The translations under genes were made by a program, and so were the position numbers. Under the pieces are notes generated by a model, which saw only the letters and a program-made list of their open reading frames with translations, did not search any database and had not been told where the DNA came from. 64,000 nucleotides of DNA from Candidatus Avelusimicrobium vaccinum (GTDB lineage Bacteria > Elusimicrobiota > Elusimicrobia > Elusimicrobiales > Elusimicrobiaceae). Positions 35,981 through 40,781 of this stretch are shown piece after piece. The DNA lies in the NCBI GenBank assembly GCA_902794895.1, contig CADBIY010000007.1, positions 1 through 64,000 on the forward strand, in the 5' to 3' direction. Positions within the stretch are counted from its first letter, which is position 1, and every line of letters starts with the position of its first letter.

Positions 35981-35986
35981 TATACT
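35981..35986 (+). promoter_or_regulatory. -10 box upstream of the structured pilin leader
   Basis: TATACT in TTAGTATACTAG, followed 5 nt later by AGTAGT, as at the pilin of 14091. Transcription would begin near 35993 and give a leader of about 260 nt before ATG 36256. Confidence 0.55.
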
Positions 35987-36007: not shown

Positions 36008-36239
36008 AACTGTTTTTGGAACTGTATGCAGAATACAGGGCATTATCCGTAAGGATAGTCCCACGCTAATCCAAAAGCAGCCGCTTGAAGCACAAGATAA
36101 AGGGCCTTATAACCCCTTTGTTTTGTGCTGAATGTTTGCCATTCTGTCAGAATGGCAAACTACGGCTGTTTATATTGCAAGGCATTAGCGTGGGTTTGCA
36201 AGTAAACGGCCGTTTTTGCGTATGGTTTCCAAAGCAGTT
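36008..36239 (+). ncRNA. Large structured leader RNA or structured repeat, copy 1 (multi-helix)
   Basis: Helices read by eye: an outer stem closes the element (AACTG 36008-36012 with CAGTT 36035+200, i.e. 36235-36239; TTTGGAA 36015-36021 with TTCCAAA 36227-36233). Hairpin CTGTAT/ATACAG is at 36022-36038. A stem ATTATCC-GTAA-GGATAGT is at 36042-36059. CCCACGCTAAT (36060-36070) pairs perfectly with ATTAGCGTGGG (36184-36194). CAGCCG (36078) pairs with CGGCTG (36163). Inside are a 16-bp hairpin (36089-36104 with 36114-36129) and a 12-bp hairpin (36134-36145 with 36149-36160). A 12-nt palindrome is at 36204-36215. The pilin ribosome site AAAGGAG lies 5 nt after the outer stem. No known family was recognised. 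Confidence 0.6.
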
Positions 36240-36255
36240 ATAAAGGAGAAATTGT

Positions 36256-36849
36256 ATGCAGAAAGAAAAGATAGATAAAATCAATAGTCATGCTGAACTT
36301 GATTCAGCATCTCGTTGTTATAACAGAGAGATTCCAAATCAAGTTTGGAATGACGGCAAAGAGAAGGGTTTCACACTCATTGAACTGTTAGTGGTAGTTT
36401 TAATCATTGGCATTTTAGCGGCGGTAGCCTTGCCGCAATATAATAAAGCGGTGGAAAAAAGCCGCGTAGCCGAGGCGCGTGTAAACTTGAACACCATGCG
36501 CAAGAACTATGAGTTATGTGTTTTAGAATATGGAGATAGTGATGATAATGAATGTAATAAGTATCAAGAATTTATTCTTAATCATTTAACTATTCCGCTT
36601 CCCGGTGAATTTGAAACCGATATTGATAATTGTCCATCAGCAGGTAGTTCTTGTTTTAAGACAAAAGATTGGATTTATGATACGGATGATTCGTATGGAT
36701 TTTATGCAAACCGCATGATAAATGGTGCAAATCCATATGGTTTATGGATACACTACAATGATGGAAGTATAACCTGCTGGAATGAAGACACATCTTCCAC
36801 TGACTACTGCAAAATGTTATGTGGCGGGCATGATTGCATTTTAAAATAA
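36256..36849 (+). CDS. Type IV pilin-like protein with a repeat-derived leader (orphan pilin 2)
   Basis: A 197-residue prepilin whose leader is unusually long, about 38 residues. Residues 11-33 of the leader (HAELDSASRC..., IPNQVWND) are the in-frame translation of the dispersed palindromic repeat. After KEKG comes FTLIELLVVVLIIGIL and the helix AALPQYNKAVEKSRVAEARV-like region. The globular part has several cysteines (CVLEYGDSDDNEC, CPSAGSSC, CWNEDTSSTDYCKMLCGGHDC). ATG 36256 follows AAAGGAG; a start inside the repeat is possible but lacks a ribosome site. Promoter and terminator are its own. Confidence 0.82.
   Translation: MQKEKIDKINSHAELDSASRCYNREIPNQVWNDGKEKGFTLIELLVVVLIIGILAAVALPQYNKAVEKSRVAEARVNLNTMRKNYELCVLEYGDSDDNECNKYQEFILNHLTIPLPGEFETDIDNCPSAGSSCFKTKDWIYDTDDSYGFYANRMINGANPYGLWIHYNDGSITCWNEDTSSTDYCKMLCGGHDCILK
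36287..36355 (+). repeat. Short dispersed palindromic repeat, copy D, inside the pilin leader
   Basis: GTCATGCTGAACTTGATTCAGCAT forms the first hairpin (GCTGAA with TTCAGC) and ATTCCAAATCAAGTTTGGAAT the second. Against copies B and C, the first arm has changed C to G and its partner G to C, so pairing is kept. Confidence 0.85.
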
Positions 36850-38770: not shown

Positions 38771-38882
38771 AGTAGTAAAAAATTTGAATCTGTTTTTGGA
38801 ACGGCATGTAGAATGTAGTGGCGCTGTGCGTAGCAGCCCAACGAGCGTCCAAAGACAGCCTGTTTAGGCGCAAAATAAACGG
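38771..38882 (+). ncRNA. Structured element, diverged partial copy 2
   Basis: This region aligns with 35992-36085 over AGTAGT...CTGTTTTTGGAAC, ATGYAGAAT, GTA, TCCAAA and CAGCC. Stems are kept although the bases differ: GCAT/ATGT replaces CTGTAT/ATACAG, and TGG-c-GCTG/CAGC-CCA (38819-38840) replaces GGG-c-ATTATCC/GGATAGT-CCC, with the same bulged C. CTGTTTA/TAAACGG adds a stem at about 38870-38882. The downstream half and the closing strand are not found here, so the copy is partial. The rest of the gap to 39035 holds one hairpin (38938-38965) and no convincing gene. Confidence 0.5.
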
Positions 38883-39035
38883 AATAATGACTTGTACTGC
38901 TCATCCGACAGCTACAGTTTACGAAAAAAATAAAAATCTTTGTCTTTCCGTTTGCACGGACAAAGAATGGCGAACTTGGATTCACGGCGAGTATTGTATT
39001 ATTTAGCGAACTCGCAACGAACCACGCAAAAAAAC

Positions 39036-39041
39036 TATAAT
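39036..39041 (+). promoter_or_regulatory. -10 box of the sulfatase gene, leaderless arrangement
   Basis: TATAAT ends 6 nt before ATG 39048. No ribosome site is present. Confidence 0.5.
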
Positions 39042-39047
39042 ATAAAA

Positions 39048-40781
39048 ATGAAACGCTTTTTTGTACAACTTTTATCCTCCTTTCAAACACAGTGGAAACT
39101 ACTACTTATTTTATCTGTTCCGGCAGTGTTGCTCGGCATTTTTGGGCTTTACCAATTAAACCGTTTAACATTTACCAATGCACTCGCACTTACCCTAATA
39201 AAAGGGGTGTGCGAGTTTTGTTTTATCGGGTGCTGCTTGGCGTTACTGAATTTACTAGGTATAAAAAATAAATGGATCTTAGCGGGATTGTTTTTTCTTT
39301 ACTATATTTCCATGACGGCGGACCTGGTGTTACTATGGTATTTCCGCGAACGCTTCGGTGCAAAATATCTAGACACATTGCAAGGCGGCGATTATGCCTT
39401 TTTAACCGATTGGCGCGTGCTGAGTTATTTAGCGTTTCTGGTTTTATTTTGCGTGTTTACTTTTCGCCGATTTTTTAAGCCAACGCCTTGGCAACAAACG
39501 TTGAAACGCGGCATGATTTGCGGGTTGGGCTTTTTAGGCTGCCTGATTTGGACGCCGCTTTCTTGGCTAAAAGCACCGGATCATTTTTACACATCTTATT
39601 TAGTGCCCCCTTCTATTTTTTACACCGCACGCGCGGTACTTACCCCCGTTCAACCCATTGAAACAAATTTAACACAGCAAACGGAACAATTGGCACAAGA
39701 CTATCATATTTTTTCCGCTAAAAATACCGGGGTCGGTAAAGATTACAAACGGGTTATTTTAATTGCCAGCGAATCGCTTTCCAATAAGTATTTACATCAT
39801 TTTAATCCCAATATTCCCGCCGAAGCAAGCAAACCGTTAGATACCCTTTTTGAAAACTACCCCTCGGCTTCATTAAAACACGTATCGCTGTCTACACTGT
39901 ATGGTTTGTCAGTTATTTTTACGTCACATCCGTACGTCAAATTAGCCTATGAAAACGGATATCCGTTTTCTTTTGTGCGCATGTTGAAGCAACGCGGCTT
40001 TCACACCGCCTTTTTACGCGGCGCCAATGAAACGTATATGAATGAACACTTACTTTTTAAACAGGCCGGATTTGAGGAAGTGATCGGAGCAACTTATTTT
40101 AAAACGCGCAGCGATTATGCGCCGTATATCCATTGGTGGGGACTTTTGGACCGCAAACTATTTGATTATGCGGTAGAATTTTTGCAAACTCATCAAAATG
40201 AACCGACTTTTATCACGCTGCTAACGGTGGACTCCCATGTTCCGCTGGGAAGACCCGATTATTTAGGGGAAATTTATAAGGAAATTGATCATCCCGCTTA
40301 TCAAATTCCCACGTTGCCGCGCGCCTTTGCGCGTTTCGGGCAAGATGTCATGCGTTTTTTAGACACGTTACGCTCTAAAAATCTGCTAGACGATCACACG
40401 CTCGTTTTAATCATGCCGGATCATCCGTCCTACTCCAATACACCCACAAATACCCTCTTTTCCCCCTTCCGTCCGGAATTTGATAATTTACCGTTTATCC
40501 TAGTTACCAAAAATAAAATTACCGCACCGGTTACCCAAAATCCGCTGGTTAGCCAACTGGATATTGCCCCGACCGTTCTAGATTTGCTGAATATTGAACC
40601 GCCTAAAGGGATGTTTGGCCATAGTATTTTTGATTTGTCTGCCCAGCGGACGGTATTTGACATTAAGGAAGACTATGCGGTGATTACCACCGATAACGGA
40701 AAGCAAGTAGTTGCATTAAATTCAACTCAGCCCAAAGATCAGGAATTACTTGCCCTTATGCGCACTTTCTTACAAGAATAA
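39048..40781 (+). CDS. LtaS/MdoB-type membrane sulfatase (phosphoglycerol or phosphoethanolamine transferase)
   Basis: A 577-residue protein with about five N-terminal membrane spans (to about residue 165) and a periplasmic alkaline-phosphatase-fold domain. Visible sites are RVILIASESLSNKYL (metal Glu and nucleophile region), HVSLSTLYG, LRGANETY, TVDSHVPLG and LIMPDHPSY (metal Asp/His). The family moves phosphoglycerol or phosphoethanolamine groups onto lipids, glucans or LPS. With an acyltransferase next to it, envelope glycan decoration is plausible; donor and acceptor are unknown. ATG 39048 is chosen over an upstream in-frame ATG because a -10 box directly precedes it. Confidence 0.8.
   Translation: MKRFFVQLLSSFQTQWKLLLILSVPAVLLGIFGLYQLNRLTFTNALALTLIKGVCEFCFIGCCLALLNLLGIKNKWILAGLFFLYYISMTADLVLLWYFRERFGAKYLDTLQGGDYAFLTDWRVLSYLAFLVLFCVFTFRRFFKPTPWQQTLKRGMICGLGFLGCLIWTPLSWLKAPDHFYTSYLVPPSIFYTARAVLTPVQPIETNLTQQTEQLAQDYHIFSAKNTGVGKDYKRVILIASESLSNKYLHHFNPNIPAEASKPLDTLFENYPSASLKHVSLSTLYGLSVIFTSHPYVKLAYENGYPFSFVRMLKQRGFHTAFLRGANETYMNEHLLFKQAGFEEVIGATYFKTRSDYAPYIHWWGLLDRKLFDYAVEFLQTHQNEPTFITLLTVDSHVPLGRPDYLGEIYKEIDHPAYQIPTLPRAFARFGQDVMRFLDTLRSKNLLDDHTLVLIMPDHPSYSNTPTNTLFSPFRPEFDNLPFILVTKNKITAPVTQNPLVSQLDIAPTVLDLLNIEPPKGMFGHSIFDLSAQRTVFDIKEDYAVITTDNGKQVVALNSTQPKDQELLALMRTFLQE

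What the first reader, a model, noticed from the sequence alone, without database searches (positions are those of the whole stretch)
38771..38882. Diverged second copy of the structured element with compensatory changes
The 5' third of the element recurs here in the same orientation. Unpaired words are conserved (CTGTTTTTGGAAC, GYAGAA, GTA, TCCAAA, CAGCC), while paired segments differ but still pair. TAT/ATA becomes CAT/ATG, and ATTATCC/GGATAGT becomes GCTG/CAGC with a conserved bulged C beside it. That pattern points to selection on RNA structure. This copy lies between thrS and a leaderless sulfatase gene; its 3' half is missing.
Basis: partly seen in the sequence, partly recalled or inferred. 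Interest (0 to 1): 0.72.

Follow-up and report, generated by a model that had tools for sequence, protein, structure and literature searches.

The report
Relic of a pilin RNA switch
The sequence is the broken remains of one copy of a new, many-copy RNA switch that gut Elusimicrobiota bacteria place in front of pilin and other cell-surface genes, and the intact copies look like on/off attenuators that may pair up with each other.

Summary
The second copy is real. Window 38790-38882 carries the 5' part of an element whose full copy lies at 36010-36217. The copy is a relic. Its ortholog in a same-genus genome is intact and leads a pilin gene between thrS and the sulfatase; the window lacks that pilin gene and the 3' half of the element.

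The intact element is a ~205-nt leader RNA with no Rfam match, found in 62 of 66 same-genus genomes, in all 18 genomes of a second genus of the family, and in one other family of the phylum. Copy number runs from 0 to about 45 per genome. Of 144 parsed copies, 130 sit within 100 nt of a same-strand gene with a ribosome-binding site (control 4 of 144); 89 lead prepilin-like genes, and most of the others examined look like surface genes.

Covariation supports two exclusive folds: helix P1 plus an intrinsic terminator, or a copy-specific ~10-bp helix plus an antiterminator. One hairpin loop carries a four-base palindrome that switches among seven palindromes, as expected for a self-kissing loop.

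Best reading: a cis-acting transcription attenuator, possibly RNA-dimerising. The trigger is unknown and nothing was tested at the bench.

The parts
36010..36217 (+). Copy 1: intact leader RNA, ~208 nt, ending in an intrinsic terminator
   Evidence: R1 match 174.9 bits (it was in the model's training set); with flanks folds at -112.1 kcal/mol, z -10.2
35981..35986 (+). TATACT, -10-like hexamer of a possible promoter for copy 1
   Evidence: read from the sequence; many copies have TATACT at a similar place; function inferred
36010..36020 (+). P1 5' strand
   Evidence: P1 columns paired in 98.9% of cells
36022..36062 (+). two hairpins (H1, H2) inside P1
   Evidence: H1 77.8% paired with both-side changes in 5 of 5 pairs; H2 by folding
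36062..36070 (+). copy-specific (barcode) strand, pairs with 36184-36192
   Evidence: 117 distinct strands, own pairing 9.7 bp versus 3.8 bp swapped
36070..36080 (+). P1 3' strand; its end with CCG (36075-36083) also forms the antiterminator strand
36089..36129 (+). hairpin A with palindromic loop (TTATAA at 36107-36112)
36134..36160 (+). hairpin B
   Evidence: 10 of 11 pairs change on both sides
36162..36217 (+). terminator hairpin and U run; 5' arm ACGGCTGTT is also the antiterminator partner; loop holds barcode partner 36184-36192
36256..36849 (+). prepilin-like gene (N_methyl) led by copy 1; AAGGAG at 36243-36248
   Evidence: PF07963, E 2.4e-9
38790..38882 (+). Copy 2: relic with P1, H1, H2, barcode strand (38837-38847) and 5' arm of hairpin A; hairpin A 3' arm, hairpin B, terminator and barcode partner missing
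   Evidence: 44 bits
38883..39035 (+). stretch where the ortholog L169 has the 3' half of the element and a 171-aa pilin gene; pilin absent here
   Evidence: only weak protein similarity left, 10-11 residues at E 0.01-0.04
39036..39041 (+). TATAAT just before the sulfatase ATG (39048)
   Evidence: a TATAAT sits similarly in the ortholog; promoter role inferred

Best explanation
The intact element is a cis-acting transcription attenuator in the 5' leader of prepilin-like and other surface genes. Fold OFF: P1 closes the 5' domain and the 3' hairpin forms an intrinsic terminator. Fold ON: the strand before P1 3' pairs with the terminator loop (copy-specific ~10-bp helix), and P1 3' plus the next bases pair with the 5' arm of the terminator (antiterminator), so RNA polymerase reads into the gene. 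Each of these helices is supported by covariation and the two folds are predicted by energy. Inferred: that termination and read-through really occur; that the palindromic loop of hairpin A lets two leaders kiss and bias the choice; what sets the switch. Copy 2 (38790-38882) is a dead remnant of such a leader whose pilin gene was deleted; that loss is inferred from one intact ortholog.
For: Covariation: 47 of 65 pairs change on both sides in 27 copies, 0 of 500 shuffles as high, slid controls 20-29. Barcode helix: 117 distinct strands, own pairing mean 9.7 bp, swapped 3.8 bp; in family f21 9.9 versus 4.6 over 30 copies. Antiterminator: RNAalifold on A6, given no structure, chose barcode helix plus antiterminator plus A plus B; its 7 antiterminator pairs are 98.9% paired, 4 with both-side changes; variants L037, L313, L340, L350 change the sequence but keep 8-10 pairs. 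Energetics: transcripts cut before the terminator's 3' arm fold as antiterminator plus barcode in 143 of 144; full transcripts as terminator in 137 of 144, 136 of them with P1. U run TTTT in 128 of 144. Position: 130 of 144 within 100 nt of a same-strand gene with a Shine-Dalgarno-like site, control 4 of 144. Palindromes: 137 of 139 copies with 9- or 10-nt loops; 7 of 9 distinct cores, p about 1e-7. Relic: ortholog L169 intact and leading a pilin.
Against: No expression, termination or dimerisation data. Energy folding ignores pseudoknots and kinetics; the barcode helix could instead coexist with the terminator as a pseudoknot. The conserved 5' arm of the terminator makes the antiterminator hard to test except in rare variants. 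5 of 144 copies have other loops, and 5 of 30 f21 copies have no such palindrome. 16 of 144 copies lack a clean TTTT after the hairpin. Most pilin genes of the window's genome lack the element: 8 of 62 have it directly upstream (matched by eye). Copies are related, so counts are not independent.
Confidence: 0.7

Rival explanations
1. A ligand- or protein-sensing leader (riboswitch, or a processive antitermination site like EAR or ops/JUMPStart) for surface genes, in which the terminator is only one output.
For: The non-pilin targets examined are mostly surface-related: glycosyltransferases, polysaccharide pyruvyl transferase, RgpF, sulfatase, outer-membrane barrels, LicD. Large conserved structure upstream of such genes.
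Against: Most conserved letters lie in paired or switch segments and no separate aptamer core was identified; no known aptamer or antitermination family matches; a complete attenuator is present in each copy.
Confidence: 0.3
2. A small mobile element (MITE-like) whose copies happen to fall upstream of genes.
For: Copy number varies from 0 to about 45 between species; 21 of 144 copies have a second CCAAA..CAG after the terminator that mirrors the 5' end.
Against: Orientation is far from random: 130 versus 4 of 144. Median distance to the start codon is 39 nt. The inverted end is absent in 123 of 144. Copies keep covarying structure rather than sequence.
Confidence: 0.08
3. The terminated leaders act mainly in trans as small RNAs, joined by kissing loops, with the gene downstream as one target.
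For: Strong terminator; palindromic loops shared between copies of one genome.
Against: Nearly every copy is tied to a gene start, which a free small RNA does not need.
Confidence: 0.12
4. Copy 2 is still functional as a short P1-domain RNA for the sulfatase.
Against: Terminator, hairpin A 3' arm and barcode partner are gone; only 2 of the 30 sulfatase loci searched carry an element upstream, and the other one leads a pilin; the sulfatase has TATAAT next to its ATG.
Confidence: 0.07

Closest known systems
Classical transcription attenuators (leader with P1-type anti-antiterminator, antiterminator and intrinsic terminator)
   Same: Two exclusive folds, terminator U run, gene start shortly downstream.
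   Different: Each copy has its own ~10-bp helix sequence and a palindromic loop; no Rfam match.
OLE, ROOL and GOLLD RNAs (PMC12286853, passages read)
   Same: OLE loop L9.3 switches an internal tetranucleotide between palindromes, the same type of evidence for a symmetric kissing loop.
   Different: Those are large RNAs forming RNA-only oligomers, not ~205-nt attenuators in front of genes (their exact sizes and roles recalled).
EAR RNA of eps operons and ops/JUMPStart elements (recalled; search listing only)
   Same: Nucleic-acid elements upstream of surface-polysaccharide genes.
   Different: No Rfam hit here; this element carries its own terminator; structures not compared directly.
c-di-GMP riboswitches upstream of pilin genes (recalled)
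   Same: Structured leader upstream of pilins.
   Different: No Rfam match; larger; ligand unknown.
Retroviral dimer-initiation loop (recalled)
   Same: 9-nt loop with 6-nt palindrome offset by two bases.
   Different: Here the palindrome varies between gene-leader copies of one bacterium.

Membership tests
transcription attenuator (intrinsic termination type) | GC-rich hairpin followed by a U run | tested here: met
   128 of 144 with TTTT after the hairpin; hairpin conserved
transcription attenuator (intrinsic termination type) | alternative antiterminator exclusive with the terminator | tested here: met
   by covariation and folding only
transcription attenuator (intrinsic termination type) | lies in the leader of a same-strand gene | tested here: met
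   130 of 144, control 4
transcription attenuator (intrinsic termination type) | regulated termination in the cell | not testable with these tools
   needs transcription assays
riboswitch | ligand-binding aptamer | not testable with these tools
   no aptamer family match in Rfam
any Rfam 15 family | covariance-model score at the gathering cut-off | tested here: not met
   0 in the window; only tRNAs in 20 loci that each hold an element
symmetric kissing-loop dimer RNA | self-complementary loop kept through sequence change | tested here: met
   7 of 9 distinct cores palindromic, 137 of 139 copies; 25 of 30 in f21
symmetric kissing-loop dimer RNA | dimer observed | not testable with these tools
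   needs native gel or cryo-EM
MITE-like mobile element | terminal inverted repeats and free orientation | tested here: not met
   21 of 144 with inverted end; orientation 130 to 4

The most novel reading that the evidence does not exclude
Leaders that share a loop palindrome recognise one another by kissing, so that pilin and surface genes of one palindrome class sense each other's transcripts, while the copy-specific helix keeps each switch folding only on itself: an RNA-only network that coordinates or mutually excludes members of a giant pilin repertoire.
Probability: 0.18. Interest if true: 0.92.

Novelty: new variant of a known kind. Interest (0 to 1): 0.74.

Why it matters
A structured leader RNA with up to dozens of copies per genome, strong covariation and a switchable palindrome would be a new regulatory RNA family in Elusimicrobiota, a phylum with little RNA biology known to me. 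It offers a concrete, testable rule for how bacteria with dozens to hundreds of prepilin genes may control which are expressed, and a natural case of a cis-regulatory RNA that may work as a homodimer.

Tried and rejected
Rfam at gathering and at relaxed thresholds on copy 1: only matches below gathering, the best of them around the glyS terminator. tRNA scan: none. The T-box idea for thrS was set aside: the element is on the strand opposite to thrS. MITE idea: rejected on orientation. Viral origin: pattern absent from viral contigs. Pilin remnant in 38883-39035: only 10-11 residue matches at E 0.01-0.04, so loss of the gene rests on the ortholog alignment, not on a remnant. Literature: six searches found no description of this RNA: Elusimicrobi with riboswitch, with pilin, E. 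minutum with type IV pil, Elusimicrobi with noncoding RNA and covariation (0 papers), Endomicrobi with pilin and regulat, palindromic kissing loop with riboswitch. I saw the listings only, plus passages of PMC12286853 and PMC11257099. The library lacks most subscription papers. In alignment A7 the L340 row was given on the wrong stretch and does not show the element; A7 was not used for any count.

Rows dropped before the counts on 144 copies: 183 aligned matches gave 151 distinct sequences of at least 175 nt; 6 failed a motif filter (L086, L037, L043, plus three antisense shadows in L053, L089, L096), leaving 145; one more antisense shadow (L116:1048-1258) was removed. Copy 2 itself is shorter than the filter. 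Copies fetched were mostly the best-scoring ones, so they are not a random sample.

Full report
WHAT IS THERE.

A FAMILY. A DNA search with copy 1 found further copies in the window's genome and matches in 13 of 24 other same-genus genomes, none in 16 genomes of another family. Twenty-seven copies aligned cleanly end to end and gave a covariance model, R1. R1 finds 18 matches in the window's genome, two of them antisense shadows, so 16 places including copy 2 at 44 bits. It finds 62 of 66 genomes of the genus and 81 of 149 of the order: 62 of 66 in g1, 18 of 18 in g14, 1 of 3 in g11, none in the other 62. One genome has 60 matches, 45 of them of 70 bits or more, two of these being identical contig-end pieces. 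A broader model, R2, finds 94 of 340 genomes of the phylum: 81 of the window's family plus 13 of one other family, f21, which the tool labels as related only at phylum level. So the window's family is most likely Elusimicrobiaceae; f21 I could not name.

ANATOMY. From 5' to 3': P1 5' strand; two hairpins; a copy-specific strand; P1 3' strand CCAAAAACAG, followed in most copies by YCG; hairpin A; hairpin B; a terminator hairpin with 5' arm ACGGCTGTT and 3' arm like AACAGCCGT; a U run; then a gene. On the 27-copy alignment, 65 pairs including the copy-specific helix are 91.9% paired and 47 have changes on both sides, against 20-29 when the partner is slid and 0 of 500 shuffles as high.

COPY-SPECIFIC HELIX. 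Across 144 copies there are 117 distinct strands; each pairs with its own terminator loop by 9.7 bp on average, against 3.8 bp when strands and loops of different copies are swapped; 112 of 117 reach 8 bp or more. The two clear failures are L048 and L133; L048 looks like a mosaic of two copies. In f21 the same holds: 9.9 versus 4.6 bp over 30 copies.

TWO FOLDS. P1 3' plus YCG is a near repeat of the terminator's 3' arm, so both can pair with ACGGCTGTT. Median duplex energies are balanced: P1 -14.0, antiterminator -12.3, lower terminator -15.2 kcal/mol; the antiterminator drops to -7.1 if the bases after P1 are shuffled. With transcripts cut before the terminator's 3' arm, 143 of 144 copies fold as antiterminator plus copy-specific helix, favoured by a median 8.9 kcal/mol; complete transcripts fold as terminator in 137 of 144, 136 of them with P1. 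RNAalifold, given no structure, chose the antiterminator fold on alignment A6, and there its 7 antiterminator pairs are 98.9% paired with both-side changes in 4; on alignment A2 it had chosen the P1-terminator fold. The most telling variants are L037, L313, L340 and L350, in which P1 and the terminator carry other sequences yet P1 3' still pairs with the terminator's 5' arm by 8-10 bp. Folding programs exclude pseudoknots, so the copy-specific helix may also coexist with the terminator.

PALINDROMIC LOOP. 139 of 144 copies have a 9- or 10-nt loop on hairpin A, and 137 of these have a palindromic central tetranucleotide: AATT, TATA, GATC, CATG, TGCA, TCGA or AGCT. Of 9 distinct cores 7 are palindromic, p about 1e-7 if cores are independent draws; one of the two exceptions is TTCGAA shifted by a base. 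The GATC class is not a six-base palindrome. Five copies have other loops. In f21 25 of 30 carry one of these palindromes in the right place (placement judged by eye). A tetranucleotide cannot pair with itself inside one loop, so this points to symmetric contact between two molecules. The same argument was made for OLE RNA, whose loop switches between palindromes (PMC12286853, passages read).

GENES. 140 of 144 copies have a Shine-Dalgarno-preceded ORF downstream, median 39 nt away; within 100 nt it is 130, against 4 for the opposite direction (136 against 30 without the Shine-Dalgarno demand). 89 of the 144 lead ORFs with the prepilin motif, 51 others, 4 none found. Twenty of the genes led, 19 of them from the 144 copies plus the one behind L313, were scanned in Pfam: glycosyltransferases (GT2, GT8, GT9), polysaccharide pyruvyl transferase, RgpF, sulfatase, YrbL, outer-membrane barrels, LicD, but also a DNA methylase, an HSDR_N protein, a HAD hydrolase and some with no match. 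The window's genome has 62 N_methyl hits; comparing coordinates by eye, 8 have the element directly upstream. Prepilin hits are far more numerous in this family (12 or more scored per genome, up to 251 candidates) than in its sister family (2 to 14). Several species with many prepilin genes have few or no elements, for example G083, so the element serves a subset.

COPY 2. Of 30 sulfatase loci searched with R1, two have an element upstream: the window's and L169 from G057; a third locus, L181, has one elsewhere. L169 is intact (153 bits), shares the flanking thrS and sulfatase starts with the window, and leads a 171-aa pilin. In the window the pilin is absent, the element stops resembling the ortholog inside hairpin A, and a -10-like TATAAT of the ortholog reads TGCAAT in the alignment. 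The sulfatase has TATAAT just before its ATG in both. The simplest history is loss of the pilin gene and decay of its leader. P1 and H1 still pair, so decay of the 5' domain is slow or recent.

MECHANISM AND LIMITS. Shown by comparison: the helices, the two alternatives, the gene association, the palindrome pattern. Inferred: termination and read-through, dimerisation, and any signal. A ligand- or protein-controlled leader remains the main rival, at 0.3. Copies are related and were mostly the best-scoring ones, so the counts describe the sample and are not independent trials.

Noticed in passing
G000 and family f1: Prepilin-like (N_methyl) genes are hugely expanded in this family: 62 hits in the window's genome, up to 251 candidates in others, versus 2-14 in the sister family.
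   Followed up: partly
L048:261-467, L133:1201-1409: Two copies whose barcode strand does not match their own terminator loop; L048 carries a strand also seen in L067 and a loop also seen in L126, as if recombined from two copies.
   Followed up: partly
window 36226-36237; 21 of 144 copies: A second CCAAA..CAG after the terminator, just before the ribosome-binding site, that could pair with the P1 5' strand.
   Followed up: partly
L038, L106, L107, L108 hairpin A: A different hairpin A loop type containing GCGACGG or GCGACGGC-like letters instead of a palindrome.
   Followed up: no
L031, L019, L164, L035, L033 downstream genes: Several copies lead small 70-86-aa proteins, some with similar N-termini (ALWxxAEA and alike); the one scanned (L031) has no Pfam match.
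   Followed up: no
window 39036-39048: The sulfatase gene seems leaderless: TATAAT ends 6 nt before its ATG, and a similar arrangement exists in the ortholog L169.
   Followed up: partly
family f21: The element appears in a distant family of the phylum with up to 25 matches per genome but is missing from all sister-family genomes searched; this is patchy, perhaps by horizontal transfer in gut habitats.
   Followed up: partly
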